NCBI RefSeq assembly: GCF_000732925.1
Contig: NZ_CP008953.1
Location: 2,480,001 to 2,544,000, forward strand
Direction: 5' to 3'
From: Amycolatopsis japonica
GTDB taxonomy: Bacteria; Actinomycetota; Actinomycetes; Mycobacteriales; Pseudonocardiaceae
Length of the DNA stretch: 64,000 nt
This document shows, one piece after another, positions 4,210 through 57,172 of this stretch. Position numbers and translations under genes: made by a program. Position 1 is the first letter of the stretch. Each line of letters opens with the position of its first letter. The notes under the pieces were generated by a model. The model was not told the origin of the DNA. It saw nothing but the letters and a program-made list of their open reading frames with translations, and ran no database searches.

Positions 4210-4324
4210 AATGCTTCTCTTTCTCGATTTCGCGCGCTCGGATATTTTCCATCAGCCGGTAATTCGGCTACGTCAAACATTAACGGCGGCGCGGGGAACC
4301 GGACAATGATCTTGAGCGACGACC

Positions 4325-4342
4325 TTGATCGAGGTTGTTCGA
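4325..4342. promoter_or_regulatory. Paired TTGNTCGA direct repeat, candidate operator
   Basis: TTGATCGA and TTGTTCGA are spaced so that the repeat period is 10 bp, followed by AAAAC. A third related copy (TTGAGCGA) lies at 4312. Nearly the same element occurs at 21817-21834 upstream of the NRPS operon. It is 116 nt upstream of the secreted-protein start. The function is inferred. Confidence 0.4.
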
Positions 4343-4350
4343 AAACCGGG

Positions 4351-7300
4351 TCACCGCACCAGGTCCCGGTCGGCGAGCGCCTGTACGCGGTCGAGGTCGG
4401 CGTCGATCTCCGCGGGTGGTGCCGCGTCCGGCAGCAGTTCCTCGATGTCGTGCAGCGGCCGGTACCGCAGGCCGAGCACGCCCCACACCACCAGCACGGC
4501 ACCGGAGACCACCATCAGCGTGGCGAAACCGCCGAGCAGGTCGGCGAGCGGTCCCGCGGTCAGGAACCCGAGTGGTTGCATGGCGGTCGCCAGCATGACG
4601 TTGATGGCGAGCACCCGGCCCTGCAGATGCTGGCCGACCTTCGTCTGGATGATCGACAGCCAGTGCGCGTTGCCGATGCTCATGCACGCCAGTCGCACGA
4701 ACAGGCCGATCGCGATCACGAACACCGAAGGCCACGCACCCATCAGCGCCACGCCGATCCCGGAGCCGACGACGAACGCGATCATGCCGGTGGCCCGGCG
4801 CGCGGTGCCGCCCCAGGTGATCACGACGAGCGCGCCGACCGCCGCGCCGATCCCGCCGACGGCACTGACCACACCCAGTTCGCCCGTCGAGCCGATCGAC
4901 AGGACCAGCGGGGTGAGGCCGACCCACATCACGGCGGTGAAGTAGTTGACCACCGCGAAATAACCGATCATCACCAGCAGCGGTTTGCGGCGCAGCACGA
5001 ACTTCCACCCGCCGGTGACCGCCCTCGTGAACGGTTCGACCCGGGTGAAGGACATCCGGTCCGGGAACCGCACCAGCACCAGGGTGGTCACGCCGATCGC
5101 GAACGTGGCGACGTCGACCACGACGACCCCGGTCAGCCCGGACAGTCCCATGAGGACACCGCCGAGGACGGGTCCGAGTACGGTGCCGAGCCCGGCGCCC
5201 ATGTCGGCGAGCGCGTTGGCCTGCGGCAGATACGGCTTCGGTACCAGCTGGGCGATCGCCGCCAGGTAGGCGGGCCGGTGGAACGCCGACGCCACCGACA
5301 TGACGCCGACGATCGCGCAGACCGTCACGAGATCCAGCCGTCCCAAGGCGAACAGCACGGCGAGCACGGCCATCGCCGCACCGCTCGTCAGGTCGCAGCA
5401 CAGCATGATCCGCCTGCGGTCCACCCGGTCGGCGAGCGCGCCGCCGACCGGCGTCAGCAGCATGCTCGGCACGCGGGCGAGCAACACGACCAGCGCGAGG
5501 TCGATGACGCGTCCGCTCAGCTGGTACGCCCACACACCGAGCGCGAACGCGCTCAGTTCGTTGCCGATCATCGACACGGCTTGGCCACCCGCCACGGTGT
5601 AGAACGCGCGCAGCCCACGCCGGGTCGCGGCCGCGGCGACCGGGACGTCGTCGATTTCCGGCGGCAGGTCACCGGCGGCCCAGCGGGACAGCCGGTCCCG
5701 CAGCAGTGCGGCGACCTCGGCGGCCTGGTGGCGCAGGAAGTAGTGCCCGGCCTTGGGTAGCACGGCCAGTTCGACGCGGTCGGCGAACACACCCCACTCC
5801 CGGTACCGCTCCTGGTACAGCTCGGTCGCCGGGTCGCTCGCCCCGGCCACGCACAGGACCGGCGCGACGAGCCGGGGCTGTGGCCCGGCGTCCGGGTCGA
5901 GCGCGCGGCCGAACCAGGACTGCGCCTGCCCCGCGTCGTGCCGCAGCGCGTGCAGCATCGCCGCGCTCGCGGCCTCGTCCATGTCGTCCAGCAGTCCGCC
6001 GGTGGCCCGCAGGGTGTCCCGGTAGAGCCGGTCCGCGACCCAGCGTTCGCGCGGGAAGCGGCGTTGCAGCCAGGCCGACAGCTTCCCCGGCAGGCGTGCG
6101 GCGGGGAAGCTGCCCGCCACGACCACCCCGGCGACGGTGCGGCCGTCGGCTTCGAGCCGGGCGGCGAGCGCGGTGGCCACCGCCGAACCGACGCAGTGCC
6201 CGTACACGGCGACCGGACCCGTGACGGTCCGGCCGATCTCGTCGGCCAGCAGGTCGACCACCTCGTCGACGGTGCGGAACGCCTCGTCGGGCCGCGCCAC
6301 GTCGTGGCCCGGCAGCTCGACGGCGAGCAGGTCGATCTCCGGTGCGGCGACGGCGAGTTCGGTGGCCAGCGGCTGGAACACCGCGGCCGAGCCGCCGCCG
6401 TAGGGCACGCAGACGAGCGTCACGTCCGGCGTGCCCGTGCGGGCGGGGGAGAGGCGGTGCAGCAGGCGCCCGTCGTCGGTGTCCCGTCCGGCGTCGAGAT
6501 GGGCGGCCAGTTCGCGGACGGTCGGATGCAGGAACAGGTCGATGACGCGCAACCGCTCGTCGATCAGCCGGACCGCGCGGACCGCGGTGAACGAATGGCC
6601 GCCGAGGGCGAAGAAGTCGTCGTCGGCGTGGATCTCGGACACGTCGAGCACCTGTGCCCACGCCTGTGCGACGCGGTGCTCTGCAGGCGTTTCCAGCGAA
6701 CGCGAACCCGTCACCGGCTCGGGACTGGGGACGGTGACCGGGCGGGACCCGGCGCGGGCCGGACCGGCCGCGGCGACTCGATTGTCCACATCGGACATCA
6801 GTCCGGTCAGGAGCGCCTGGAAGTCGGCGACGATCTCTTCGGCGGTGGCGGCGTCGAACAGGTCGGCCCGGTAGGCGAGGCCACCGAGATAGGTGTCGCC
6901 GTCGTTGACCAGCACCAGGCTGAGGTCGAACTTCACCTGCTCGCCCGCGTCGCGGACGGCCGTCACCTCGACACCCGGGATGGCGGGCGGTGTCGCCGGC
7001 TGATCGAGGACGTTCAGCAACACCTGGAAGATCGGCGTCGCGGCCACGGATCGCTCCGGCCGCAGCCGCTCGATGATCCGTTCGAGCGGCGTCTCGGCGT
7101 GCGCGAAAGCGCCGAGCACGGTCTCGCGGGACCGGCCGAGCAACTCCCGTACGGTCGGATCGCCGCCGAGATCCGTGCGCAGCACGAGCGTGTTCACGAA
7201 ACAGCCCACCGTCGACTCGACGTCCGGGTGATGCCGTCCGGACTCGGGCACGCCGACCGCGACGTCTTCGGTACCGGCGCGGCGGCCGAGCAGTTCCTGC

Positions 7301-10300
7301 CAGCAGGCCAGCAGCACCATGAACGGCGTCACGCCCGTCTCGGCCGCGACCCGCCGCACGCGTGCGGTGAGCGCGGCGGGGAGCGCGAACCGGACGTGCC
7401 CGCCGGACCACCCGGCCACCGCCGGACGGGGCCGGTCGGTCGGCAACGTGAGCAGCGGCGGCAGCCCGGAAAGCCGGTCACACCACCAGTCCAGGTCTTC
7501 GTCGCGTGCGCGGGCGGCCAGCCAAGCGGCGTAATCCGCGTACTGGACGGGCAAAGCCGCGTCCGGTGCGGATCCCGCGAGCCGGGCGGCGTACGCGTCG
7601 GCGAGGTCCGTCCCGATCACGCCGCGAGACCAGTTGTCGGTCGCGATGTGGTGCACGGTGAGCGCGAGGACGTGCTCGTCGTCGGCGATCCGGAACAGCG
7701 ACGCCCGCAGCGGCGGCTCCCGGTCGAGCGCGAACGGCCGGGCCAGTTCCGTCCGGCACGCCGCGTCGACCCGATCGGCGGCGATGTCCACAACGGACAT
7801 AGGGACGCGGTCGGCCGGTACCGGCACGGCCACCGGGGTCCCGTCCCGTTCCTCGATGACGGTGCGCAGGACGGTGTGCCGTGCGGCGACGTCCCGCACC
7901 GCGAGCGCCATCGCCGCCGAGTCCAGCGGCCCACGCAGCCGCAGCACGAGATCGGCGTGATAGGCCGAGCCCGGGCCGAGCAGTTCGAGGAACCACAGCC
8001 GCGCCTGCGCGGACGACAGCGGCGCGGGTGCTTCGGGATCCGGCCGCACGGGGATGGGTGCGCCGCCGGACACGCCGTCCGGGTCGGCGGCCAGCACGGC
8101 GGCGAGATCGGCCAGCACGGGGTGCTCGAACATCGTGCGCACGGCGACATCGCGGTGCAGCGCCTCACCCAGCCGTCCCGCCACGCGCACCGCGGCGAAG
8201 GAATGCCCGCCCACGGCGAAGAAGTCGTCGTCCGCGGAGATGCCGTCGATCCCGAGCACGTCGCTCCAGATCCGCGCCACGAGCCGTTCGGCCGGGGTCG
8301 CCACCGGCCGCCGCGTCGCGGGCACACGCTCGGCGGCGTCGGGCAGAGCCGCCCGATCGATCTTGCCGTTCGCGTTGAGCGGCAAGCGATCCAGCACGGT
8401 CAGCGAGGCGGGCACCATGTAGTCCGGCAGCCGCTCGCGCAGTGTCCGGCGTACGGTCGCCACGTCGAGTCCCGGCCCGACGAGCCAAGCGGCCAGGCGC
8501 CGGTCGAGGCCGTCACCGACCGGCAGGACGACGGCCTCGGCCACGCCGTCGACGTCCCGCAGTGCGGCGGTGACCTCGCCCAGTTCCACCCGGTGGCCGC
8601 GCACCTTCACCTGGTCGTCGGCGCGGCCGAGGAACTGCACGGTGCCGTCGGCGCGGATCCGCAACAGGTCTCCGCTGCGGAAGCATCGCACGCCGGTGCC
8701 CAGCGGGTCGGGCACGAACCGGGCCGCCGTCTGCGTGTCGTCGCCGAGATAGCCCCGCGTGATCTGCGGTCCGCCGATCACCAGTTCGCCGGTCATGCCA
8801 CCGGGAACGACCGCGCCGCGCGCGTCGACGAGATGACCGGCGACCCCGGGCAGCGGGATGCCGAGCGGTACGTATCCGGTGCGTTCGTGCGGTGGGACGG
8901 TCGCCACGTCGCAGGTCATCGAGATCATCGTGCTTTCGGTGTGCCCGTAGTGGCTCTGCACCCGCAGGCCGGGCCGGGCTGTCTCGACGCGCTCGACGAG
9001 CGACCACGGGCACGCTTCACCGGCGAGGATCAGCAGCCGATTCGGCAGCACGGCGGCCAGATCCCCATGCCGGGCAAGGAGTTCCAGGTGGCTGGGCACG
9101 CATTTGAGCACGTCGACCGGATGCTCGGCCAGGTAGCGGGCGAAGGATTCCGGGTCCATCGCGGTGTCCCGCTCGACCAGATGCACCGTGCCGCCGGTGG
9201 TGAGGGCACCATAGACGCAGGTGAGGCCGAAGTCGGCGGCCGGGGTGGAGACCACGGCGAACGACGCGCCCGCCACGTCGCCGAGCCGGGGCAGCATGCC
9301 CGACAGGTAGTGCGCGACGTTGCGGTGCTCGACCGCGACACCCTTGGGAGCGCCGGTCGAACCGGACGTGAAGATGACGTGGATGAGGTCGTGCCCCGCG
9401 ACCGGGACGCCCGGCCTGCTGCTGGGCTGGGCGGCGACGGCGTCGTCGACGGTCAGGACGGTGACATCGGGAACGGTGATGTCGAGGCCGGGTTCGGCGA
9501 GCAGGATCCGGGCCTTCGCGGTGGCGAGGATGGCGGCCACCCGCGACGGCGGGTAGGTGGTGTCCATCGGCAGATACGCGCCACCGGACTTCATGATGCC
9601 CAGCACCGCGACCGCGACATCGGTGCCCTGCTCCAGCAACATCCCGACCGGCTCGTCAGCGCGCACGCCCAGTTCACGGAGCCGATGCGCGAGCCGGTTG
9701 GCCCGCTCGTCGAGCTGCCGGTAGGTCAGCGAACCGGCCCCGCCGACCACCGCGACCGCGTCCGGGCAGCGGTCGGCGGTGTCCTCGATCAGGGTGTGCA
9801 CCGGCCGGAGTTCGGTCCGATCCTGGGCCGGTCCTGCCAGCACCGGCGAGGTGACGACCTCGACGGGCACCTCGGCCACTGGCCGGTCGAGGTCCGCGGT
9901 GATCCCGTCGACGAGCGTGACGAACCAGCGGGCGATCCGCTCCGCGGTGCCCCGGTCGAACAGGTCGGTGCGGTAGGCGAGCCCGCCCGAATAGCCGTCA
10001 CCGGACCGGGACAGTGCGAGGCTCAGGTCGAACTTGACGCCGCGCACCGGCGGTTCGGTGACTCGCGTGGTCAGGCCGGGTAGCTCGGGCGTCCGTGACG
10101 GTTCGTCGAGGACGTTGAGCATGACCTGGAAGATCGGCGACGCGTCGAGCCCGCGCCGGGGCGCGACCCGTTCCACGATCCGCTCGAACGCCACGCCCGT
10201 GTGCGCGAACGCGTCGAGCACCGTGTCGCGTGCGGTGGCGAGCAGATCGCGGCCGGTGGTCGCCCCGGCCAGGTCGGTGCGCAGCACCAGCGTGTCGACG

Positions 10301-11262
10301 AAGCAGCCGACGACCCGTTCGGCGTCCGGGTGGCGCCGTCCGGACTCGGGCACCCCCACCGGAACGTCGGTCGTCCCGGCCAGCCTGGCGAGCAAGGTCT
10401 GCCAGCACGCCAGGAACACCATGAACGGGGTGGCGCCGGTGGTGCGGGCGATCTCCCGCAGCCGCGCGGTGAGGGCGGCAGGCACCTTGACGACGACTTC
10501 GGCGCCCTCGTCACCGGCCACGGCCGGCCGGGGCCGGTCGGTCGGCAGCGCCAGCACCGGGGGCAGTCCGGCGAGCCGCTCGTGCCACCAGTCCAGATCG
10601 GCCTCGGCGGTGTCCGGCCTGGAATCATTCCATGCCACCAGATCCGCGTACTGGAGCGCCGGTGGTGGCGGTACGTCGCGGAGGCCGAGGCGGGCCGCGT
10701 AACAGGCGGCGAGGTCGTCGAGCACGACCGCGGCCGACGGGGCGTCCATCGCGATGTGGTGGAACGTCAACGCCAGCACACGCCGGTCGGCGGCGACGCG
10801 GAACAGCACCGCCCGCATCGGCGGCAGGTCGCCGAGCGCGAACGGACGGACGGCCTCGGCGGCCACGGCGGCGTCCAGTTCCTCCGCCGTCACGTCCACA
10901 GTGGACACCGGAACGCCGGGTCCCGGGCACCGCATCGGCTCGCCGTCGATCTCCCGGTACACGCCGCGGAGCACGTCGTGGCGGTCGGCGACGTCACGGA
11001 CCGCGGCGAGGAGCGCGGTCTCGTCGGCCGGTCCGGTCAGGTCGAGCACGAGCGGCAGGTTGTAGGTGTGGCCGCCGGGTTCGAAGCGGGCCAGGAACCA
11101 CAACCTGGCCTGCGCGGACGACAGCGGCGCCGGTGATCCGTCGCGAGGGAGGCGGGGGATGGAGGGCTCCGCGGCGGGGCCGCCGCTCAGTGCGGCGGCG
11201 GCGCGGCCCGCGAGCAGTTCGCGCATCCGTCGCTGCGCGGGGGTGATCAGTGAGTCGGTCAT
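4351..11262 (-). CDS. NRPS2: C-A-PCP-C-PCP-TE with fused MFS exporter
   Basis: The product is 2303 aa, and its ATG overlaps the NRPS1 stop (ATGA), so translation is coupled. Domains by approximate residue: C3 40-480 (HHIAMDA), A4 490-985 (TSGSTGAPKG, unusual YGHTE in place of YGPTE), PCP4 with Ser1021 in GGHSF, C4 1075-1510 (HHIATDN), PCP5 with Ser1557 and no A domain in this module, and TE 1612-1850 with elbow GHCVG (Cys1690) plus downstream Asp and His (ASDPAT, AGHYF). Residues from about 1880 form a complete 12-TM MFS transporter of the EntS/MFS_3 type, with loop motif GGALADRVDRRR. No stop separates TE from MFS. By eye the A4 pocket reads about D-F-T-K-I-A-H-M-I; Lys at the fourth position recalls Asp-type codes. 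It probably finishes, releases and exports the peptide begun on NRPS1. The product is unknown. Confidence 0.93.
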   Translation of the reverse strand: MTDSLITPAQRRMRELLAGRAAAALSGGPAAEPSIPRLPRDGSPAPLSSAQARLWFLARFEPGGHTYNLPLVLDLTGPADETALLAAVRDVADRHDVLRGVYREIDGEPMRCPGPGVPVSTVDVTAEELDAAVAAEAVRPFALGDLPPMRAVLFRVAADRRVLALTFHHIAMDAPSAAVVLDDLAACYAARLGLRDVPPPPALQYADLVAWNDSRPDTAEADLDWWHERLAGLPPVLALPTDRPRPAVAGDEGAEVVVKVPAALTARLREIARTTGATPFMVFLACWQTLLARLAGTTDVPVGVPESGRRHPDAERVVGCFVDTLVLRTDLAGATTGRDLLATARDTVLDAFAHTGVAFERIVERVAPRRGLDASPIFQVMLNVLDEPSRTPELPGLTTRVTEPPVRGVKFDLSLALSRSGDGYSGGLAYRTDLFDRGTAERIARWFVTLVDGITADLDRPVAEVPVEVVTSPVLAGPAQDRTELRPVHTLIEDTADRCPDAVAVVGGAGSLTYRQLDERANRLAHRLRELGVRADEPVGMLLEQGTDVAVAVLGIMKSGGAYLPMDTTYPPSRVAAILATAKARILLAEPGLDITVPDVTVLTVDDAVAAQPSSRPGVPVAGHDLIHVIFTSGSTGAPKGVAVEHRNVAHYLSGMLPRLGDVAGASFAVVSTPAADFGLTCVYGALTTGGTVHLVERDTAMDPESFARYLAEHPVDVLKCVPSHLELLARHGDLAAVLPNRLLILAGEACPWSLVERVETARPGLRVQSHYGHTESTMISMTCDVATVPPHERTGYVPLGIPLPGVAGHLVDARGAVVPGGMTGELVIGGPQITRGYLGDDTQTAARFVPDPLGTGVRCFRSGDLLRIRADGTVQFLGRADDQVKVRGHRVELGEVTAALRDVDGVAEAVVLPVGDGLDRRLAAWLVGPGLDVATVRRTLRERLPDYMVPASLTVLDRLPLNANGKIDRAALPDAAERVPATRRPVATPAERLVARIWSDVLGIDGISADDDFFAVGGHSFAAVRVAGRLGEALHRDVAVRTMFEHPVLADLAAVLAADPDGVSGGAPIPVRPDPEAPAPLSSAQARLWFLELLGPGSAYHADLVLRLRGPLDSAAMALAVRDVAARHTVLRTVIEERDGTPVAVPVPADRVPMSVVDIAADRVDAACRTELARPFALDREPPLRASLFRIADDEHVLALTVHHIATDNWSRGVIGTDLADAYAARLAGSAPDAALPVQYADYAAWLAARARDEDLDWWCDRLSGLPPLLTLPTDRPRPAVAGWSGGHVRFALPAALTARVRRVAAETGVTPFMVLLACWQELLGRRAGTEDVAVGVPESGRHHPDVESTVGCFVNTLVLRTDLGGDPTVRELLGRSRETVLGAFAHAETPLERIIERLRPERSVAATPIFQVLLNVLDQPATPPAIPGVEVTAVRDAGEQVKFDLSLVLVNDGDTYLGGLAYRADLFDAATAEEIVADFQALLTGLMSDVDNRVAAAGPARAGSRPVTVPSPEPVTGSRSLETPAEHRVAQAWAQVLDVSEIHADDDFFALGGHSFTAVRAVRLIDERLRVIDLFLHPTVRELAAHLDAGRDTDDGRLLHRLSPARTGTPDVTLVCVPYGGGSAAVFQPLATELAVAAPEIDLLAVELPGHDVARPDEAFRTVDEVVDLLADEIGRTVTGPVAVYGHCVGSAVATALAARLEADGRTVAGVVVAGSFPAARLPGKLSAWLQRRFPRERWVADRLYRDTLRATGGLLDDMDEAASAAMLHALRHDAGQAQSWFGRALDPDAGPQPRLVAPVLCVAGASDPATELYQERYREWGVFADRVELAVLPKAGHYFLRHQAAEVAALLRDRLSRWAAGDLPPEIDDVPVAAAATRRGLRAFYTVAGGQAVSMIGNELSAFALGVWAYQLSGRVIDLALVVLLARVPSMLLTPVGGALADRVDRRRIMLCCDLTSGAAMAVLAVLFALGRLDLVTVCAIVGVMSVASAFHRPAYLAAIAQLVPKPYLPQANALADMGAGLGTVLGPVLGGVLMGLSGLTGVVVVDVATFAIGVTTLVLVRFPDRMSFTRVEPFTRAVTGGWKFVLRRKPLLVMIGYFAVVNYFTAVMWVGLTPLVLSIGSTGELGVVSAVGGIGAAVGALVVITWGGTARRATGMIAFVVGSGIGVALMGAWPSVFVIAIGLFVRLACMSIGNAHWLSIIQTKVGQHLQGRVLAINVMLATAMQPLGFLTAGPLADLLGGFATLMVVSGAVLVVWGVLGLRYRPLHDIEELLPDAAPPAEIDADLDRVQALADRDLVR

Positions 11263-14200
11263 GCCGTGCTTCCCGCCTGGACATCGATGGCGCCGTCGTC
11301 CGCCAGTACGGTCATCGCGATCCGTTCCAGTTCGACCGCGAACTCCCGCAGCACGGGCCGGTCGAACAGACAGCGCACCGGGACGGGGAACCCGAGCGCC
11401 TCGCCGAGACGGCCGACGACCTTGGTCGCGGCGAGGGAATGTCCGCCGAGGCCGAAGAAGTCGTCCAGCGCGCCGACCTGCTCTTGGCCGAGCACCTCGG
11501 CCCAGATCATCGCGACAAGTTCTTCGACCGCCGATTCCGGCCGGCTGTCGGGCCGCGTCTGCGCGACGGGGGCGGGTAGCGCGGTGCGGTCCACCTTCCC
11601 GGTCGCGGTGACGGGGAACGCGTCGAGCGGCACCCAGCGGTGAGGCACCGCGTAGTCGGGTAGCCGTCCGCGCAGCACGGCCGCCGCCACATCCGTGTCC
11701 ACAGTGGACGGAGTGAGATAGCCGACGAGATGGGGTTCGCCCTCCCCGGAGCGCACCACGACCACCGCGTCGGTCACTCCGGCGACCGCGCGCAGCACAT
11801 GCTCCACCTCGCCGAGTTCGACCCGGTTGCCGCGGATCTTCACCTGGTGGTCGGCGCGGCCGTGGAACTCCAGCGCGCCGTCGGCACGCCAGCGGACCAG
11901 GTCGCCGGTGCGGTAGGAACGGACCCCGTGCAACGGGTCGGTACCGAAGGCGGCCGCGGTCCGCTCCGGACGGTCGCGGTAGCCCGGTGTCACGCCGGCA
12001 CCGCCGATGGACAACTCGCCGACGGCGCCGGGAAGCGCGGTCCGGCCGAACGGGTCGACCACTGTGAGCAGGGTGCCGTCGAGGGGGCCGCCGATCGGTA
12101 TCGGCCGGTCGGCCGCCAGGTCGGCGGTGGTCACCAGGTGCGTGGTCGCGGTGATGGTGGTCTCCGTGGGGCCGTAACAGTTGCGCAGGCTCGCGACCCG
12201 GGCGGTGACCTGCCGCGCCAGCGCGACGTCGAGGGCCTCGCCGCCGGAGAACACGTGCAGTCCCGGCAGCTCGGGAAGTCCGGCGGCGACGAGCATCCGC
12301 AAGGTGGTCGGTGTCGGGTTGAAGCGGGTCGCGCCGGTCGAGACGAGCCGCCGGACCAGCGCGTGCCCGTCGACGGCACAGTCCCGGTCGGCGATCGCGC
12401 AGTGCGCGCCCGCGGTCAAGGTCGTCCAGATCTCGCCGGTGGCGGTGTCGAACACGAGCGGCGCGACCGCGAGCCAGGTGTCGGACGGCCGGACGCCGGT
12501 GACTTCGCGGAAGGCGTGGACCAGCGCGGCGAGATTCCGATGCGTGACCGTGACGCCCTTCGGCCTGCCCGTCGAACCGGAGGTGTAGAGGACGTAGGCG
12601 AGGTCGTCCAGGCCCGGTTCCCGCAGCGCGCGGTCGTCCGTGACGGGATTGTCCAGGTCCACGACGGTCAGGTGCGGCAGGGCGGCGCGGGCCACGTCCA
12701 GCGCGGGACCGCGGGCGGCGACGACCCGGATCCCGGCATCGGCGGCGAGTGCCGCGATCCGGTCCGCGGGATGGCCGGGGTCCAGCGGAAGGTACGCGCC
12801 ACCGGCCCGCCATACCGCGAGCAGCCCGGCGGGCAGGTATTCGTCGCGGGGCAGGCATACGCCGACCACGTCGCCGGTGGCGACACCCGCGGCGAGCAGA
12901 CCGCGGGCGCCCCGTGCCGACCACGTGGCCAGGTCCGCATAGGACAGCCGGCCGGTAGGCGATGAGGTCGCCACCGCGCCGGACTGTCGCGCGAGCACGT
13001 CGGCGATCACGGTCCGGGTGGCGGGCAACGGTTTCCCGGTTCCCCAGGAGAACAACGCGGCACGTTCCGCGGCGTTCAGGATGTCCAGTGTGGACAGTTG
13101 GGCGTCCGGGTCGTCGGTGAGGCGGTCGAGGAGGGTGCCGTACCAGCGGGCCCAGCGTTCGATCGTGTCCCGGTCGAACAGGTCGGTGCGGAACACGAGC
13201 CTGCCCGTGTAGCCGTCGCCGGTTTCGGCGAGGTCGAGGTTCAGGTCGTACAGCGCGGTGGCGACCGGTTGCGGCAGCACCGTCACCGCCAGGTCGCCGA
13301 GCGTCGCGGCCGCCTGGTCGTCGAGGACGTTCATCATCACCTGGCACACCGGGGTGCTCGCCGGATCCCGCTCCGGCGCGAGCCGCCGCACGACCTCGTC
13401 GAACGGCACGTCGGCGTGTGCGAACGCGTCGAGCACCGCGTCGCGTGTCCTGGCCACGAGGTCGCGGCCCGACACGTCGGTCCCCAGATCGGCACGGACG
13501 GCCACGGTGTCGACGAAGAAGCCGACCATCCCGGCCAGTTCGGCGGTGCGGCGGCCGCTGTGCGGCACGGCGACGGCGAGGTCCCGTACCCCGGCCAGCC
13601 GGGCGAGCAGCAGTTGCCAGGCCGCGAGCAGGACCGTGAACGGGGTGGTCCCGGTCGCGCTCGCCAGTGCCCGGACCCGCTCCGTGACGTTCGCGGGCAG
13701 CCGGACCGGGACCTCGCCGGCCGTCCAGTCCGCGATGGCGGGGCGGGGCCGGTCGGCGGGCACTCGCAACGCGGGCAGATCAGCGAGCCGCCGCTCCCAC
13801 CAGTCGAGCCCCGCCGCCCGGTCCTGTTCGCGTTCCCGTACGGCGTGGTCGGCGTACTGGACCGAGAGTGGCGGATCATCGGGTTCCGTGCGGTACCACG
13901 CGTCCATTTCGGACAGCAGGAGCCGTTGGGACGTCGCGTCGGTGGCGATGTGGTGGCAGGTGAGGGCGAGCACGTGATGGTCCGGGCTGAGCCGGAACAG
14001 GACCACGCGCAGTGGTGGAGCGGCGTCCAGGGCGAACGGCCGCCGGATCTCCGCTCTCACCGCCGCGGCCAGATCTGGTTCACGGACGTCCACAGTGGAC
14101 ATCGGGACGGCGTCGGCCGGTCCGAGGAGTGCGACCGGCTCCCCGTCGATCTCGGTGAACCGGCTGCGCAGCACGTGATGGCGCGTCGTGACTGCGCGGA

Positions 14201-17200
14201 CGGCGCGGTACAGCCGGGGCTCGTCGAGTGCGCCCAGGATCCGTAACACGGTGGGAGAGTTGTACGCGGCGCTGTCCGGGTCGAGCTTCGCCGCGAACCA
14301 CAGCATGCGCTGCGCCGGTGACAGTGGCGCGGGGGCGTACGGGTCCGCGCGGGCGACGAGCGGTCGGTCGGCGGGGGTGGCTTCCCCGTCGATCCGCGCG
14401 GTGAAGTCGGCGAGCACGGGGTGGTCGAACAACGTGCGGACGGTGATCCGGCGTCTCAGCCGGGTGTGCAGGAGGCCGACCACCCGGGTCGCCGCCAGCG
14501 AGCGGCCGCCGAGGGCGAAGAAGTCGCTGTCCGGGCCGATCTCCACGTCGAGTTCGAGGCATTCCCGCCACACCTGCGCGACCACCGCCTCGGCTTCCGA
14601 CAGCGGTGCGACCGCGGCAGGGCGGGCGACGGGCGTCGGCGGAAGGGCGCGTCGGTCGAGCTTTCCGTTGGGCAGCAAGGGGAGCGCGTCCAAGGCGCAC
14701 CACGAACTCGGCACCATATAGGCGGGCAGTAACCGTCGTAGTCGTCGCTCGACGGCCGCCGTGTCGACGGTAGGGGGAGTGAGGTAGCCGATCACGTGCG
14801 CGTCCACGCCGTCCTCGGCGACCGCCACCGCCGCGTCGTCCACATCGGACAGTCCACGCAGGACGGATTCGATCTCGCCCGGCTCGAACCGGTTGCCGCG
14901 CACCTTCACCTGGTCGTCGGCGCGGCCGACGAATTCCAGTGTCGCCTCGGGGCGCCACCGGACCAGATCACCGGTGCGGTAGCAGCGTTCGCCCGGCCGC
15001 ATCGGGTCGGCGACGAACGCGGGCCCGGTCAATTCGGGCTGTGCCCGGTAGCCGGTCGCCACACCGGTGCCGCCGATCCACAGCTCGCCGATCGCGCCGG
15101 GCGGCGCGAGCCTGCCCGCCTCGTCCACCACGTACAGCCGCGCGCCTGGCGTCGGCGAACCGATCGGGACCCGGTCCCGGTCGTGCCCGGTGACCCGGTG
15201 CGCGGTCGCCGCGACCGTGGTCTCCGTCGGGCCGTAGCCGTTCCACAGCTCGCCGACCAGCGGCCGGACCCGCGCGGCGAGATCGGGGTCGAGCACCTCG
15301 CCGCCGAGCAGCAGCCGCAGCGTGGGGTCACCCGCCCAGCCCGCGGCGAGCAGCATCCGCAGGCTCGTGGGGGTCAGGTCGACGACGGTGACCCCGCTTT
15401 CGGCGATCCGCCGCGCGAGCCGGTGACCGTCGATGGCGGTGTCGCGGTCGGCGACGACGCAGCGCGCGCCGGTGGCGAGCGGCCACCACAGTTCCTCGGC
15501 CGACACGTCGAAGGCGAGCGGCGCGACCGCGAGCATCGCGTCGTCCCGCGTCATACCGGGGCAGAGCCCGCGGGAACGGACGAACGCGTACAGGTTCGCG
15601 TGGCTGATCTCGACCCCCTTGGGCCGCCCGGTCGACCCGGAGGTGTACAGCACGTAGGCGAGGGAGTCGCCATCCGGCAGCACCGGCTCGAAGGGCACCC
15701 CGTCGGTCCGGTCGGCATCGACCACGCGCAAGCCCGGCGCGGCGTCGGCGACTTCCGACGCCACCGGCTGGGCGCCGCCGCGCGTGAGCAGGATGCGCAG
15801 GCCGGCCTCGTCCGCGAGCTGGGCCAGCCTGGCGACGGGTTGTCCGGTGTCGAGCGGCAGATATCCCGCACCCGTCCGCCACACGGCGAGCAGCGCGGCG
15901 GGAAGGAACTCGTCGCGCGGCAGGCATACCCCGACCGTGTCCCCGGCCGTCACCCCGGACGCGGCGAGCACGCGCGCGATCCGGTCGGCGTGGCCCACAA
16001 GTTCCGCGTACGTCAGCTGCCCGCCCTCAGCGGACAGCGCGACCGCGTCGGGTGTCCGCGACGCGGTGCGCCACACCGCCTCCGGCACGCCGGCCGCGTC
16101 GTCGTCGGGCAGCGCGGGGCCGGTGCCCCAGCTCGTCAGCACGGCGAGTTCCCCGTCGGCCGCCAGTTCCAGTGTGGACAGCGCGGTGTCCGGTGTGGAC
16201 ACAGCGGTGTGCAGTAGGTGCAGCAGGGAACGGGAGAACCAGCGGGCGCGGTCGGGGGCGAGCCACGACGGGTCGTGCTCGACGATCAGCTCGGTGCCGC
16301 CGACATGGGTGTTCACGAACACCGTCAGCGGGTTGTGGCTGCCGCCGGTCGGCAGCTCGCCGAGCAGGTCCAGCCGCGTGTCCGGCCCGTACGCCGACAG
16401 CGGCAGGCCGTCGGGCTGCACCGCGATCGACACGGGGGTGAGCGGTACCCCGGTCGGCCGGTCGCCGCCCCACAGCCCGGCGAGTTCACCGCTGGGCAGG
16501 CCCCGATGGTCGATAGCGCGCGCCGCCGTGGTCATGGCCGCGCGCAGGAGGTCGCGGAACGACGTGTCCGCGTCGAGCCGCAACCGCACCGGCAGGACGT
16601 CGACGAGCGGCCCGACGGTGTGCTCGAGCTCGGGCCGGTCCCGGTGCGCGGCCGCCATCCCCAGCAGCACGTCCTGGCCCCGCACCAGTTCGCCGACCAG
16701 CAGTCCCAGCGCCGACAGGTACACCGCGAACGGCGTCACCCCGGTCGATTCGGCCAGCGCACGCACCGCTGACCCCAGCGATCCCGGTAGCGGAGTGCTG
16801 ATCCGTTCCCCTCCGAAGCGCTGACGGCCGTGCGCGGCGCGGTCGAACAGGGCGTCCGGCGGGGTCGCGCCCGCCAGCTCTTCCGACCAGTACGCCGTCA
16901 GCCGGCCTCGCTCTTCGGGTATCGCCGCGAGCGCGCGTTCCCGCGACGCCACCGCGCCCACCTGCGCGAAGGAAGCCGCGGGTGCGCCGGTCAGCTCGGC
17001 CATGAGCACGCCGATGGACGCGCCGTCGGTGGCGATGTGGTCGGACACGACGATCAGGTCGGCCACGTCGTCGTCGAGGCGGAGCAGCGTGATCCGCAGG
17101 AGCGGCGTGTCACGGGAGAGGTCGAACGCGTGCCGGGCGGCGGAGGCGGCGAGTTCCCCGGCTTGACGGTCCGCGTCGGGCAGCCCGCGCAGGTCGTGTA

Positions 17201-19307
17201 CGTCCACCGGAACCCGCACCGGCGGGCCCACCACCATGACCGGTTCGCCGTCGTGGTCGCCGATCGTGCCGCGCAGCACCTCGTGCCGGGCCACGACCTG
17301 GTCCGCGGCGGCCCGCAGTGCGGGCACCGACACCCGGCCGCGCAGCCGCAGCCGCCACGCGACGGTCGTCGCGGTGCCGGTCGAACCGAGCTGGGCGAGC
17401 GTCCACAGATCCCGTTGCGTGCCGGTCAAGGGAAAGGTCCCCGGGTTTTCCTCCAGTGCCAAGGAAGGCGCGGCGGCCGGAGCGTCCGCGAGCCGCCGCG
17501 CGACCGCGGCCACCGTGCCGTCGGAGAGGAACTCCGTCAGTGTCACCACCCGGCCGGTGCTCTCCCGCAGTCGCGCGACCGCGCGCGCCGCGGCCAGGGA
17601 ATGCCCGCCAGACTCGGAGAACCGGTCGTGCACACCGATCCCCGGCAGCCCGAACGCGGCAGCGACCTCCTCGGCGACCAGCCGCTCCGCCTCGGTGCCC
17701 GGGGCGGTGTACTCGGTGTCCTCGCGGTCGAAGACCCACGCCGCCAGCGCGGTCCGGTCCGCCTTCCCGGTCGTGCCGAGCGGGATCGCGTCGAGGACGG
17801 CGATCCGTGACGGCACCAGGTGCGCGGGCAGCCGCGAGCGCAGCCACCGCAACAGTTCCTGCTCGGTCACCGCGGCCCCGGCCGGTTCGGCGAACCCGAC
17901 GAGCCTGCGTTCCCCGTGCTCGTCGGCGGGCGCGAGCACCACCGCGTTGCCGACGGCCGGGTGGGTGAGGAGCGCCGCCTGGACCTGTCCCGGTTCGATC
18001 CGGAAGCCCCGCACCTTCACCTGGTCGTCGGCGCGGCCGACGAAGTGGTGCACGCCGTCGCGGCATCGGACCAGGTCGCCGGTGCGGTAGTGCCGGACGC
18101 CGCGGGAGTCGACCACGAACTTCTCGGCGGTCAGCTCCGGCTGCCCCAGGTACCCGCGGGTGACGAGTGTCCCGCTGACCCACAGCTCGCCGACCTCGTC
18201 GTCACCGAGCGCGCGACCGTCGGCATCCCGCACCGAGAACGCGGCGCCGGGAAGCGGGGTCCCGATCGGCGGGTCGGCCGATTCGTCCCGGCCGACTTCG
18301 TGGCACGAACAGTTCACCGTCGCCTCGGTCGGGCCGTAACAGTTCACGATCCGCCGCACGCCCTCGTTGGCGTAGAGGCGGTCGACGAGCGACCGGTGCA
18401 GGGCCTCACCCGCGATCGCTACGGTCCGCACCGAACGCGGGAGCGGGGTCCGCGCCAGCACCGCCAGGACGGACGGCACGCCCTGCACGAACGTCACCTC
18501 GTCCCGCGCGGCCAGCCCGGGCAGCGCGAGCAGGTTCTCGGCGAGCACCAGGCTCCCGCCGGTCACCAGGGGCGGGAAGACTTCGGCGACGGACGCGTCG
18601 AAGCAGACCGACGCGGCGCCGAGCACGCCTCGCAGCTCGTCGTCGCCGTAGGTCGCGGCCGCCCACGCCAGCAACGCGAGCACGTTGCGGTGCTCGACCT
18701 GGACACCTTTCGGCCTGCCGGTGGAGCCGGACGTGTAGATCACGTACGCGAGGTCCGTGCCGGAACCCGGGACAGCGGGGGCGGCCGTGGGCGCGGAGGC
18801 GACGTCCCCGACGGCCAGCACCGGCACGTCGGCGTCCGCGAGCGCGACCGGATCCGGTTCGTCCGCCACCACCAGCGACAGCCCGGAGTCCGCGACGACC
18901 GACGCGCCGTGCGCAGGAGGAGCGGCCGGGTCCAACGGGACATAGGCGCACCCCGCCTTCAGCACCCCCAGCAGGGTGGGGACCAGCCACCGGCCGCGGC
19001 GCAGGCAGACGCCGACGAGGTCACCGCGGGCCACCCCGCGACGGAGCAGCGCGTACGCGACCGTGTTCGCGGCCTCGTCCAGCCGCGCGTAGCTCAGCCG
19101 CTCGTCGCCCGCGACGAGCGCGCAGCGGTGGGGTGTCCTTTTCGCCTGCGCCTCGAACGCCTCGTGTACCCGCTCGAATCCGCCCAGATCTGCCCGCAAC
19201 CGCTGAATCCCCTCGTGACCCGGCCGGAGTTCGCCGACCTCGGCAGATTGAACTTCCGGGACGCCGCCCGGACCAGGAAACCCGACCGGAAACTGTGCGG
19301 ACGGCAA
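11259..19307 (-). CDS. NRPS1: A-PCP-C-A-PCP-C-A-PCP
   Basis: The product is up to 2682 aa. A TTG at 19307, 7 nt after the upstream regulator stop, is the longest start; a TTG at 19199 preceded by GAGGGG is an alternative. Domains by approximate residue: A1 45-535, PCP1 (Ser570 in GGHSL), C1 620-1045, A2 1060-1565, PCP2 (Ser1603 in GGRSL), C2 1640-2070, A3 2085-2580, PCP3 (Ser2624 in GGHSL). There is no C domain before A1, so this is the initiation protein. C1 has SDHIATDG (first His of HHxxxDG is Asp); C2 has HHIATDA. There are no epimerase or methyltransferase domains. Pockets by eye: A1 D-A-A-Q-A-A-C-V-N, A2 D-V-E-D-L-G-G-V-A (acidic, so a basic substrate is plausible), A3 D-T-G-P-F-G-C-I-T. 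Two rare TTA codons are present at 14730-14732 and 14244-14246. Confidence 0.93.
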   Translation of the reverse strand: MPSAQFPVGFPGPGGVPEVQSAEVGELRPGHEGIQRLRADLGGFERVHEAFEAQAKRTPHRCALVAGDERLSYARLDEAANTVAYALLRRGVARGDLVGVCLRRGRWLVPTLLGVLKAGCAYVPLDPAAPPAHGASVVADSGLSLVVADEPDPVALADADVPVLAVGDVASAPTAAPAVPGSGTDLAYVIYTSGSTGRPKGVQVEHRNVLALLAWAAATYGDDELRGVLGAASVCFDASVAEVFPPLVTGGSLVLAENLLALPGLAARDEVTFVQGVPSVLAVLARTPLPRSVRTVAIAGEALHRSLVDRLYANEGVRRIVNCYGPTEATVNCSCHEVGRDESADPPIGTPLPGAAFSVRDADGRALGDDEVGELWVSGTLVTRGYLGQPELTAEKFVVDSRGVRHYRTGDLVRCRDGVHHFVGRADDQVKVRGFRIEPGQVQAALLTHPAVGNAVVLAPADEHGERRLVGFAEPAGAAVTEQELLRWLRSRLPAHLVPSRIAVLDAIPLGTTGKADRTALAAWVFDREDTEYTAPGTEAERLVAEEVAAAFGLPGIGVHDRFSESGGHSLAAARAVARLRESTGRVVTLTEFLSDGTVAAVARRLADAPAAAPSLALEENPGTFPLTGTQRDLWTLAQLGSTGTATTVAWRLRLRGRVSVPALRAAADQVVARHEVLRGTIGDHDGEPVMVVGPPVRVPVDVHDLRGLPDADRQAGELAASAARHAFDLSRDTPLLRITLLRLDDDVADLIVVSDHIATDGASIGVLMAELTGAPAASFAQVGAVASRERALAAIPEERGRLTAYWSEELAGATPPDALFDRAAHGRQRFGGERISTPLPGSLGSAVRALAESTGVTPFAVYLSALGLLVGELVRGQDVLLGMAAAHRDRPELEHTVGPLVDVLPVRLRLDADTSFRDLLRAAMTTAARAIDHRGLPSGELAGLWGGDRPTGVPLTPVSIAVQPDGLPLSAYGPDTRLDLLGELPTGGSHNPLTVFVNTHVGGTELIVEHDPSWLAPDRARWFSRSLLHLLHTAVSTPDTALSTLELAADGELAVLTSWGTGPALPDDDAAGVPEAVWRTASRTPDAVALSAEGGQLTYAELVGHADRIARVLAASGVTAGDTVGVCLPRDEFLPAALLAVWRTGAGYLPLDTGQPVARLAQLADEAGLRILLTRGGAQPVASEVADAAPGLRVVDADRTDGVPFEPVLPDGDSLAYVLYTSGSTGRPKGVEISHANLYAFVRSRGLCPGMTRDDAMLAVAPLAFDVSAEELWWPLATGARCVVADRDTAIDGHRLARRIAESGVTVVDLTPTSLRMLLAAGWAGDPTLRLLLGGEVLDPDLAARVRPLVGELWNGYGPTETTVAATAHRVTGHDRDRVPIGSPTPGARLYVVDEAGRLAPPGAIGELWIGGTGVATGYRAQPELTGPAFVADPMRPGERCYRTGDLVRWRPEATLEFVGRADDQVKVRGNRFEPGEIESVLRGLSDVDDAAVAVAEDGVDAHVIGYLTPPTVDTAAVERRLRRLLPAYMVPSSWCALDALPLLPNGKLDRRALPPTPVARPAAVAPLSEAEAVVAQVWRECLELDVEIGPDSDFFALGGRSLAATRVVGLLHTRLRRRITVRTLFDHPVLADFTARIDGEATPADRPLVARADPYAPAPLSPAQRMLWFAAKLDPDSAAYNSPTVLRILGALDEPRLYRAVRAVTTRHHVLRSRFTEIDGEPVALLGPADAVPMSTVDVREPDLAAAVRAEIRRPFALDAAPPLRVVLFRLSPDHHVLALTCHHIATDATSQRLLLSEMDAWYRTEPDDPPLSVQYADHAVREREQDRAAGLDWWERRLADLPALRVPADRPRPAIADWTAGEVPVRLPANVTERVRALASATGTTPFTVLLAAWQLLLARLAGVRDLAVAVPHSGRRTAELAGMVGFFVDTVAVRADLGTDVSGRDLVARTRDAVLDAFAHADVPFDEVVRRLAPERDPASTPVCQVMMNVLDDQAAATLGDLAVTVLPQPVATALYDLNLDLAETGDGYTGRLVFRTDLFDRDTIERWARWYGTLLDRLTDDPDAQLSTLDILNAAERAALFSWGTGKPLPATRTVIADVLARQSGAVATSSPTGRLSYADLATWSARGARGLLAAGVATGDVVGVCLPRDEYLPAGLLAVWRAGGAYLPLDPGHPADRIAALAADAGIRVVAARGPALDVARAALPHLTVVDLDNPVTDDRALREPGLDDLAYVLYTSGSTGRPKGVTVTHRNLAALVHAFREVTGVRPSDTWLAVAPLVFDTATGEIWTTLTAGAHCAIADRDCAVDGHALVRRLVSTGATRFNPTPTTLRMLVAAGLPELPGLHVFSGGEALDVALARQVTARVASLRNCYGPTETTITATTHLVTTADLAADRPIPIGGPLDGTLLTVVDPFGRTALPGAVGELSIGGAGVTPGYRDRPERTAAAFGTDPLHGVRSYRTGDLVRWRADGALEFHGRADHQVKIRGNRVELGEVEHVLRAVAGVTDAVVVVRSGEGEPHLVGYLTPSTVDTDVAAAVLRGRLPDYAVPHRWVPLDAFPVTATGKVDRTALPAPVAQTRPDSRPESAVEELVAMIWAEVLGQEQVGALDDFFGLGGHSLAATKVVGRLGEALGFPVPVRCLFDRPVLREFAVELERIAMTVLADDGAIDVQAGSTA

Positions 19308-19314
19308 CTTCCGG

Positions 19315-21762
19315 TCAGGACGGCACCATCGCGATACCCATCGCGTCGTACAGCGATTGCGCGCGTTCGCGATACGGCTTGGCCTTGTCCGGCGCGCCGA
19401 CGCCGTCGTGGGTCGCGGCGATACCGGTCAGCGCGCGGGCCTCCTCATGCGGTTCGCGGGTCAGCCGGGCGAGTTCGGCGGCCCGCGTGTAGTGCGCGAG
19501 CGCGGTGGGCCGGTCACCGCGGGCCAGCGCGCTGTCCGCGAGCCCGTTGTGCACGAGGGTCTCCAGCGGCCGGATGCCCGTCGCCACCGCGATGTCGAGC
19601 GCGGCCTCCTGGTGCACGCGGGCCGCCGCCGCGTCGTCCTGCCGGAGGTGCACCAGCCCGAGGTAGGCCAGTGCGTATCCTTCGGCCTCCCGGTGGCCCT
19701 CGGCCCTGCTGACCGTCAGCGATCGGCCGAGGTGGTCGTGGGCCTCCGTCCACCGGCCCAGCGCGCGGTACACGTCTCCGAGGTTGTGCAGCGCGATCGC
19801 TTCGCTCAGCCGGTCACCGATGCGTTGGGCGTTGGTCAGGCATTGCCGATAGCAGTCGAGAGCGGCGTCCAGTTCGCCCCGGCGTTCGTGGACGAAGCCG
19901 AGGTTGGACAGCGCGCGCCCCTCGTTGAGGCGGTCGCCGTTGTCCCGGGAAACCGTGACCGCCCTGCTCAAGTGGTCCGCCGCGTCGGCGTAGCGGCCCA
20001 GTTGCCCGTACACGGTGCCGAGGATGTTCAGGGCGCGGCCGGTGGCGACCGGGCTCGCGTCGACGTCGAGGCAGCGGGTCAGATGTGTCACGGCCTCGTC
20101 GAAATGGCCGAGCCGGGCGCAGATCGCCGCCAGGTCGACGAGCGCCTGCTGGATGCCGATGGCATCGCCCGCCCGCTGTGCCTCGCCGAGCGCGAGACGG
20201 TGCAGTGTGCGCAGCGCGCCGTAGTGACCGTGGACCCGCAACACCTGCCACAGCACGGTCGAGAGGTCGCGGGCGTAGGTGTCGCCGGTGGCCGACGACT
20301 GTTCCGCGATGGCGATCAAGGTGGGCATCTCCGCCGCCAGCCAGGTCGCCGCGTCTTCGGCGCCGGTGAACCTGACGTTCTCGGCGATCGGGGTGAGCAG
20401 CGGTCTTCGGTTGGGGTCGCCCGCCCCCATCGACCCGGCCGCGTCGGCCGCCCCGGCCACACAATGCTCGGCGAGCCGGCGCAGGGCCGCCGATCGCCGC
20501 CGCGCCGGTTCCTCGTCGGCACGGCCGCGCGCGTAGTCGCGGACCAGGTCGTGGAATTCGAACCGGCCGTCCGCGCGGTGCGCGAGCAGCAAGTGACTGT
20601 CGACGAGCGCGTCGAGGAGCCGGCGGGTCTCCGGCGGATCGGTGCCCAGCAGAGCCGCCGCGGCGGCGGTGTCCCAGTGCGGGCCGGGGTGGAGTCCGAG
20701 CAGACGCAGGCCCGACGCGACGTCGCCGGGCAGCGCGTCGTAGGACCAGGACAGCACGGAGGGCAGGGAGGTGGTCTTCTCTTCGGTGGTCAGTGCGGCG
20801 AGCCGGCCGCCGGCCGAACGCATCGAGGACGCCACGTTCGCCAGGTTCCGGTGGTGCGCGAGCCGTTCACCGACGATGCGCAGGGCGAGGGGCAGGCCGC
20901 CGCATCCCGACACCATGTCGGCGAGCGCGGTGCGGTCGGTGAATCTTCGTCCGTCGCCCGCCAACCGGTCGAGCAAGGAGAACGACTCCCGTTCGGTCAG
21001 CAGGGGCACCGGCACCCGGTGCGCGTCGGCGCTGATCGTCAGCCCGTGCAGGGCCGCGCGGCTCGTCACCACCACCGCGCAACCCGCGTGCCCGGGCAGC
21101 AGCGGCCGGACCTGGTCCGCCGAGCGGGCGTTGTCCAGCACGATGAGCACCGAACGGCCGGCCAGCACACTGCGCAGCGACGCTGCCCGGTCGTCGAGGT
21201 CGGCGGGCACATCCGCCACGGGCACGCCGAGCGCCCGCAGGAACGACCGCAGCACCTCGGCCGGATCGACCGGCGCCCCCGGCCCGTACCCACGCAGGTT
21301 CGCGAACAACTGCCCGTCGGGGAAGTCCTGCTTGACGCGGTGCGCCCATTGCACGGCCAACGACGTCTTGCCGACCCCGGCCATGCCCTCCAGCACCGCC
21401 ACGAGGACACCCGCGCCGGCCTTCTCGCCATGGAGGGCGTCGAGCACGTCGATCTCCCGCTGACGCCCGATGAACGACGTGATCCCCGAAGGCAGTTGCG
21501 CGGGCACCGCAACGACCGGCGTTTTCGCAGGTGAAACCGCGTCCGGGCAGTAGTGCCGCACGAACCGGCTCGCCTGCTCGCCCTGGAGACCCAGCCCCAG
21601 CGCCAGCGCCTCCACCGAATGGCGCCGTGGCCTGGCGACCCGGCCGCGTTCGATGTTGCTGATGCTCCGCACCGTCAACCCGGTGCGTTCCGCCAGCTCC
21701 TCTTGCGTCAGCCCGGCATCCCGCCGTGCCTCACCCAGCAGCGAACTCGGCCCACGGTCCAT
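19315..21762 (-). CDS. XRE-NB-ARC-TPR (STAND) regulator of the NRPS operon
   Basis: The product is 815 aa. Residues 8-60 are an XRE helix-turn-helix (GLTQEELAERTGLTVRSIS). A FIGRQREID segment leads into an NB-ARC ATPase with P-loop GMAGVGKTSLAV near residue 130, LIVLDNARSADQV, and CGGLPLALRIVG. From about residue 480 to the C-terminus there are TPR-like repeats (RALNILGTVY, RALSNLGFVH, ALHNLGDVY). The stop is 7 nt before the NRPS1 TTG, so the regulator and both synthetases form one operon. It is likely a pathway-specific, ATP-switching DNA-binding regulator acting on its own promoter. The TTGATCGA repeat pair 55 nt upstream of its start is a candidate site. The ligand is unknown. Confidence 0.9.
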   Translation of the reverse strand: MDRGPSSLLGEARRDAGLTQEELAERTGLTVRSISNIERGRVARPRRHSVEALALGLGLQGEQASRFVRHYCPDAVSPAKTPVVAVPAQLPSGITSFIGRQREIDVLDALHGEKAGAGVLVAVLEGMAGVGKTSLAVQWAHRVKQDFPDGQLFANLRGYGPGAPVDPAEVLRSFLRALGVPVADVPADLDDRAASLRSVLAGRSVLIVLDNARSADQVRPLLPGHAGCAVVVTSRAALHGLTISADAHRVPVPLLTERESFSLLDRLAGDGRRFTDRTALADMVSGCGGLPLALRIVGERLAHHRNLANVASSMRSAGGRLAALTTEEKTTSLPSVLSWSYDALPGDVASGLRLLGLHPGPHWDTAAAAALLGTDPPETRRLLDALVDSHLLLAHRADGRFEFHDLVRDYARGRADEEPARRRSAALRRLAEHCVAGAADAAGSMGAGDPNRRPLLTPIAENVRFTGAEDAATWLAAEMPTLIAIAEQSSATGDTYARDLSTVLWQVLRVHGHYGALRTLHRLALGEAQRAGDAIGIQQALVDLAAICARLGHFDEAVTHLTRCLDVDASPVATGRALNILGTVYGQLGRYADAADHLSRAVTVSRDNGDRLNEGRALSNLGFVHERRGELDAALDCYRQCLTNAQRIGDRLSEAIALHNLGDVYRALGRWTEAHDHLGRSLTVSRAEGHREAEGYALAYLGLVHLRQDDAAAARVHQEAALDIAVATGIRPLETLVHNGLADSALARGDRPTALAHYTRAAELARLTREPHEEARALTGIAATHDGVGAPDKAKPYRERAQSLYDAMGIAMVPS

Positions 21763-45615: not shown

Positions 45616-57150
<11,535 letters not shown>

Positions 57151-57172
57151 CGTGAAACACCCTGGAGCTGCG

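What the first reader, a model, noticed from the sequence alone, without database searches (positions are those of the whole stretch)
4351..6420. NRPS terminal TE fused in frame to a full MFS exporter
The frame runs without a stop from PCP5 through a TE domain into about 400 residues of a 12-TM EntS/MFS_3-like transporter. Release and export on one polypeptide would anchor a 2303-residue synthetase to the membrane and channel product out. With the other oddities of this locus, this is the least explained system in the window.
Basis: partly seen in the sequence, partly recalled or inferred. Interest (0 to 1): 0.75.

Follow-up and report, generated by a model that had tools for sequence, protein, structure and literature searches.

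The report
Peptide synthetase fused to its exporter
A bacterial peptide-making enzyme carries what looks like its own membrane pump on the same protein chain, a design shared by many soil bacteria, so releasing the finished compound and exporting it are probably physically joined.

Summary
Confirmed, on the minus strand: NRPS2 (4351-11262, 2303 aa) is C-A-PCP-C-PCP-TE-MFS in one open frame. It is no frameshift and no one-off: 140 distinct TE-MFS sequences stay open across a 15-127 aa linker, in four phyla, three in this genome. Junctions are not enriched in internal starts (24 of 140; 37 of 140 in a control stretch). Fused MFS parts form one side of a branch in an MFS tree (SH-aLRT 89). The TE-MFS model is confident (pLDDT 88.3, pTM 0.85) with a drug/H+-antiporter fold. 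Best reading: a membrane-anchored synthetase whose Cys-TE releases, and whose MFS exports, one small, perhaps strained-ring peptide. Transport, ring chemistry and direct hand-over are inferred. Eight literature searches aimed at such fusions, in open-licence papers only, found no description. New variant of a known kind.

The parts
4351..11262 (-). NRPS2, 2303 aa, C-A-PCP-C-PCP-TE-MFS; ATG start at 11262 overlaps the NRPS1 stop
9877..11127 (-). C domain (residues 46-462)
8341..9792 (-). A domain (residues 491-974), specificity letters DFTKIAHMI
8095..8289 (-). PCP4 (residues 992-1056)
6775..8022 (-). second C domain (residues 1081-1496), followed by no A domain
6496..6681 (-). PCP5 (residues 1528-1589)
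5701..6468 (-). TE domain (residues 1599-1854); triad Cys1690, Asp1810, His1840 by alignment to ObiF1
5614..5700 (-). 29-residue TE-MFS linker without a start codon
4354..5634 (-). MFS exporter domain, from the first modelled long helix to the C-terminus (HMM match 4510-5613)
11259..19307 (-). NRPS1, A-PCP-C-A-PCP-C-A-PCP; the true start may be nearer 19199
19315..21762 (-). HTH, NB-ARC, TPR protein, probable regulator of the cluster
   Evidence: role inferred
4210..4350 (.). gap after NRPS2 where close relatives L039-L042 carry four genes (PLP lyase-like, SbnA, carbamoyltransferase-like, SbnB-like); none of the four is found in the 64 kb window

Best explanation
NRPS2 is a bifunctional release-and-export protein. 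Its soluble assembly line is held at the inner face of the membrane by a C-terminal MFS domain of the drug/H+-antiporter fold. The peptide assembled on NRPS1 and NRPS2 is taken over by a cysteine-nucleophile TE of the ObiF/SulM kind, released (perhaps by closing a strained or otherwise reactive ring on a beta-heteroatom) and exported by the attached MFS. Shown by computation: one continuous frame, conservation of the fusion, the Cys-Asp-His triad, the folds, and purifying selection on the MFS part. Inferred: membrane location, transport activity, which compound is exported, ring chemistry, and direct TE-to-MFS hand-over.
For: One open frame with both domains above Pfam cut-offs. 140 distinct fused sequences with open junctions in four phyla. 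Fused MFS parts on one side of a branch, SH-aLRT 89. TE and MFS distances correlate, r 0.88 over 45 rows. dN/dS of the MFS part 0.13-0.20 in four pairs, TE 0.16-0.24. MFS columns as conserved as TE columns (0.59 and 0.57; linker 0.34); G347, D351 and R352 of the loop resembling MFS motif A invariant in 45 rows. Cys nucleophile in 133 of 139; ObiF1 and SulM nearest. Model pLDDT 88.3, pTM 0.85. Precedent for transporter-tethered NRPS: cereulide (passages of PMC7527721).
Against: No transport, localisation or product data. Six of 139 fused TEs have Ser. Cys-TEs without an MFS also exist (L144, L151, L152), so Cys-TE chemistry does not require the fusion. The SulM lactam motif Gln-Cys-Asn is absent. 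The linker is variable in length and little conserved, which argues against a tight fixed channel. A simple hydropathy scan gave 10 merged hydrophobic segments, not 12. The last C-PCP has no A domain, so what reaches the TE is unclear.
Confidence: 0.68

Rival explanations
1. The MFS part is only a membrane anchor or scaffold for the synthetase; another pump exports the product.
For: In the cereulide system the transporter's tethering role is itself needed for synthesis (passages of PMC7527721). No transport data here.
Against: An anchor would not need transporter constraints, yet G347, D351 and R352 are invariant in 45 rows, MFS columns are as conserved as TE columns, dN/dS is 0.13-0.20, and the model superposes on transporters over more than 350 residues.
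Confidence: 0.15
2. The MFS is made or ends up as a separate protein, by an internal start or by cleavage in the linker, so the fusion is only genetic.
For: 131 of 140 junction stretches hold some in-frame ATG, GTG or TTG, and 24 of 140 have one with a Shine-Dalgarno-like site. The linker is variable. In L126 an A-PCP frame is followed by a separate overlapping MFS frame.
Against: The control stretch inside the TE has more such sites, 37 of 140. The window linker has no start codon. A conserved in-frame fusion over four phyla is not needed for separate proteins. Cleavage was not testable.
Confidence: 0.1
3. The fusion only co-localises: an ordinary hydrolytic or macrocyclising TE frees a stable peptide or siderophore into the cytosol and the MFS picks it up by diffusion, with no strained ring and no hand-over.
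For: Loose variable linker. Distant EntS resemblance. The ObiF-like Asp position is shared with hydrolytic type II TEs (passages of PMC6668435 and PMC11298585).
Against: Cys nucleophile in 133 of 139 and closest similarity to two ring-forming Cys-TEs. No siderophore gene was recognised beside NRPS2 in the window, though that region was only partly scanned.
Confidence: 0.35
4. Frameshift, sequencing error or chimeric assembly.
For: None found.
Against: Same junction in 140 distinct sequences from four phyla.
Confidence: 0.01

Closest known systems
ObiF/ObiF1, obafluorin NRPS with beta-lactone-forming Cys-TE (PDB 6n8e, PMC6668435)
   Same: TE sequence (E 1.6e-43 for PCP-TE), fold (Z 30.3, 242 residues, 37%) and Cys/Asp/His triad with Asp in the RifR-like position (passages)
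   Different: ObiF ends in MbtH-like and aryl-A domains or the MbtH-like domain, with no MFS; product chemistry here unknown
SulM, sulfazecin NRPS with beta-lactam-forming Cys-TE (PDB 8w2c, 8w2d, PMC11298585)
   Same: Cys-TE, same fold (Z 29.8), Asp in position II
   Different: Lacks the Gln-Cys-Asn motif (His-Cys-Val here); no MFS reported in the passages read
Cereulide CesAB with ABC transporter CesCD (PMC7527721)
   Same: Transporter holds an NRPS at the membrane (passages)
   Different: Separate proteins, ABC not MFS, interaction mapped through C domains
Poly-epsilon-lysine and poly-Dap synthetases (PMC4668381)
   Same: NRPS with C-terminal transmembrane segments (abstract and passages)
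   Different: No C or TE domain; transmembrane segments surround tandem soluble domains; not an MFS
MFS drug/H+ antiporters (SotB, VMAT, NorA) and EntS
   Same: MFS_1 and MFS_3 above cut-off; fold Z 30-32
   Different: Below the EntS and TIGR00900 curated cut-offs; fused to an NRPS

Membership tests
Cys-nucleophile type I TE (ObiF kind) | Cys at the nucleophile position | tested here: met
   window GHCVG; 133 of 139 fused TEs
Cys-nucleophile type I TE (ObiF kind) | catalytic Asp in the RifR-like position II | tested here: met
   window Asp aligned with the ObiF1 Asp; position described
Cys-nucleophile type I TE (ObiF kind) | forms a beta-lactone | not testable with these tools
   needs a biochemical assay
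SulM-type beta-lactam TE | Gln-Cys-Asn motif | tested here: not met
   His-Cys-Val in the window; motif given
MFS exporter | Pfam MFS_1/MFS_3 gathering scores | tested here: met
   98.4 and 78.5 bits against 33.4 and 27
MFS exporter | 12-helix MFS fold | tested here: met
   model helices fit 12 if 415-469 counts as two (my reading); superposes on SotB, VMAT and NorA; plain hydropathy gave 10 merged segments
MFS exporter | transports the cluster's product | not testable with these tools
   needs an export assay
EntS enterobactin exporter | NCBIfam NF007792 cut-off | tested here: not met
   101.5 against 324 bits
Poly-lysine-type membrane NRPS | no C or TE domain | tested here: not met
   C and TE domains present; feature from PMC4668381
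NRPS assembly line | C, A, PCP and TE domains | tested here: met

The most novel reading that the evidence does not exclude
A whole family of NRPSs joins a strained-ring-forming Cys-TE to its own MFS pump, so that a reactive peptide (beta-lactone, beta-lactam or similar) is handed from TE to transporter at the membrane and never builds up in the cytosol: release-coupled export and self-protection in one polypeptide.
Probability: 0.3. Interest if true: 0.87.

Novelty: new variant of a known kind. Interest (0 to 1): 0.62.

Why it matters
NRPSs are usually treated as soluble assembly lines with separate exporters. A conserved covalent synthetase-exporter family gives a directly testable case of product hand-over from release domain to pump, names the likely exporter of each such cluster, and flags many uncharacterised clusters whose Cys-TE is related to beta-lactone and beta-lactam formers.

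Tried and rejected
Frameshift or artefact: rejected by 140 distinct open junctions. Internal translation start: no enrichment. EntS identity: not met. SulM lactam motif: not met. Five plasmid records matched; the two opened carried no annotation over the match, though both hold the fusion. No phage record matched at E 1e-20. A 396-genome phylum draw scored only about two candidates per genome, and its 3 of 396 says little about true frequency. Queries held both domains and so favour fusions; searches used one domain alone.

Rows dropped before counts: repeated TE-MFS pairs counted once; one of 140 TEs not readable at the nucleophile. MFS rows reduced from 171 to 59 representatives, TE rows from 142 to 32 plus two solved ones. 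Of 132 terminal A domains 21 gave no specificity letters and 1 only part; these rows can repeat a gene. The lyase table used only loci with at least 1100 bases downstream, 105 rows, not independent. SbnA was looked up in 6 of the 7 genus genomes with a close fusion; G051 was left out. A motif-A pattern count held repeats and is not used.

Literature: of ten searches, eight aimed at such fusions and gave no description of an NRPS-MFS or TE-MFS fusion in their listings; sought Cys-TEs and poly-lysine synthetase. I saw passages of PMC10700112 (FhuF-like domains, not relevant), PMC3924187 (lists a sensor kinase-MFS fusion family), PMC6668435, PMC4668381 and PMC7527721, and passages plus one section of PMC11298585. 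Only open-licence papers are held. I recall, from no call, that NCBI may name some such proteins as combined synthetase/MFS transporter.

Full report
WHAT IS THERE. The frame lies on the minus strand. Window 11262-4351 encodes 2303 aa with Pfam Condensation x2, AMP-binding, PP-binding x2, Thioesterase, MFS_1 and MFS_3. HMMs made from these loci give C(46-462)-A(491-974)-PCP(992-1056)-C(1081-1496)-PCP(1528-1589)-TE(1599-1854)-MFS(1884-2251). NRPS1 upstream is A-PCP-C-A-PCP-C-A-PCP. The last C-PCP of NRPS2 has no A domain.

IT IS A FAMILY. The window's genome (Amycolatopsis, judged by its nearest named relatives) holds three TE-MFS proteins: the window, an 82% copy and a 40% one. In 60 genomes of the genus 32 match at E 1e-60 or better. 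In genome contigs 148 stretches encode relatives; the 80 kept include Herpetosiphon, a Spirochaetes MAG, Dyella, Rhodanobacter and Solirubrobacter. In loci L001-L117, 112 ORFs had a TE hit, 119 an MFS hit and 112 both; those queries held both domains. With a TE-only query over 148 genomes of the class, 14 of the 18 listed places were fused and 4 were not. With an MFS-only query over 100 relatives of genome G557, 58 matches came from 16 genomes, 54 of them in open frames of over 1600 aa (domain make-up checked only for fetched loci). With repeats removed there are 140 distinct TE-MFS sequences, linker 15-127 aa, median 40.

ONE UNIT, CONSISTENT WITH ONE ORIGIN. In a quick tree of 59 MFS representatives (29 fused, 30 alone) the fused rows are one side of a branch, SH-aLRT 89; some lone rows are long branches, so one origin is not excluded rather than proven. 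In a TE tree of 34 rows the fused rows are also one side of a branch, weakly (56), with ObiF1 next to them. TE and MFS distances correlate at r 0.88 over 45 rows; the best of 1000 permutations was 0.21. Mean majority-residue frequency is 0.57 (TE), 0.34 (linker) and 0.59 (MFS). dN/dS in four pairs is 0.16-0.24 (TE) and 0.13-0.20 (MFS). The MFS part is thus selected as protein about as strongly as the TE.

NOT A SEPARATE MFS, AS FAR AS SEQUENCE TELLS. 131 of 140 junction stretches hold some in-frame start codon, but only 24 one with a Shine-Dalgarno-like site, against 37 of 140 in equal stretches inside the TE. The window linker has none; two GTGs lie inside the MFS domain without such a site. 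Cleavage cannot be judged.

THE RELEASE DOMAIN. The nearest solved sequence is ObiF1 (E 1.6e-43 for PCP-TE), then SulM. Cys is the nucleophile in 133 of 139 readable fused TEs, Ser in 6. In the alignment the window's Cys, Asp and His face those of ObiF1, whose triad is Cys1146, Asp1254, His1284 with Asp in the RifR-like position (passages of PMC6668435; PMC11298585). The Gln-Cys-Asn motif proposed for beta-lactam TEs is absent. Cys-TEs without an MFS also exist (L144, L151, L152).

STRUCTURE. AlphaFold2 on 45 aligned members gives pLDDT 88.3 and pTM 0.85: an alpha/beta-hydrolase, a short linker and a bundle whose long helices I read as 12; a plain hydropathy scan gave 10 merged segments. Foldseek ranks ObiF1 first. 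VIA-align gives SotB Z 32.4 (373 residues), VMAT1 32.1, NorA 30.4, ObiF1 30.3 (242 residues, rmsd 2.0, 37%) and SulM 29.8. A shared fold does not show the substrate.

CLUES TO THE PRODUCT. Close relatives L039-L042 and the genome's own second copy (L200) carry four genes just after NRPS2: a PLP protein best matched by hydroxyaspartate and threonine ammonia-lyases (below cut-offs), SbnA for L-2,3-diaminopropionate (above cut-off), and carbamoyltransferase- and SbnB-like proteins (below cut-offs). The window and L038 lack all four at this site; G053 keeps there a scar of the first and the last gene. At the second locus of G007 and G053 the loss is the opposite: the regulator and NRPS genes are gone, and the region just upstream of NRPS1 runs into the complete four-gene set. 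All 6 genomes looked up keep one close SbnA (82-95%). This reciprocal loss suggests that the four genes serve the window-type NRPS in trans. The PLP lyase-like gene follows 24 of 27 clusters whose last A domain reads DFTK.AHM and 0 of 78 others (rows not independent); one of the three exceptions is L038, whose genome has the gene at the other locus. Of 110 readable terminal A domains 68 have K at the fourth position (Asp-like, by codes I recall), 31 read DVWH.SL.D (Ser, recalled) and 11 are other. A Ser, or a beta-hydroxylated or beta-amino Asp-like residue, would offer a beta-heteroatom for a four-membered ring; that is inference.

HOW IT LIKELY WORKS. Peptide from NRPS1 and NRPS2, transfer to the TE cysteine, release (possibly with ring closure), export by the tethered MFS. 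Co-localised release and export follows from the anatomy; direct hand-over does not, and a loose linker fits a model without it. The nearest functional precedent is cereulide, where an ABC transporter tethers the NRPS to the membrane and is needed for synthesis (passages of PMC7527721). Poly-lysine and poly-Dap synthetases are membrane NRPSs without TE (PMC4668381, abstract and passages).

VERDICT. Real, conserved and, as far as eight aimed searches of open-licence papers reach, not described as an architecture. Each domain is of a known kind, so it is a new variant of a known kind, interest 0.62.

Noticed in passing
window 4210-4350; L010; L200; L203; L204: Reciprocal gene loss: the window-type locus lost a four-gene L-Dap/carbamoyltransferase/PLP-lyase set, while the second locus of G007 and G053 lost its NRPS genes and kept that set.
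   Followed up: partly
window 6496-8022: The last C-PCP of NRPS2 has no A domain; relatives such as L043 have C-A-PCP there. Whether PCP5 is loaded in trans is open.
   Followed up: partly
window 11259-19307 against L199, L041, L042: NRPS1 of the window has a third C-A-PCP module where the second copy and its relatives show two PCPs in a row.
   Followed up: no
L201 (G000:C1:4882000-4900000): Third TE-MFS NRPS of this genome sits beside two ATP-grasp ligase-like genes and a TauD-family dioxygenase.
   Followed up: no
   Followed up: no
L069, L149, L178, L193, L194, L195: Six fused TEs with Ser instead of Cys; natural variants for testing what the Cys does.
   Followed up: no
   Followed up: no
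window 45679-64000: Two very large plus-strand frames (3823 aa and at least 2276 aa); the second begins like a modular polyketide synthase, by eye. A separate cluster.
   Followed up: no
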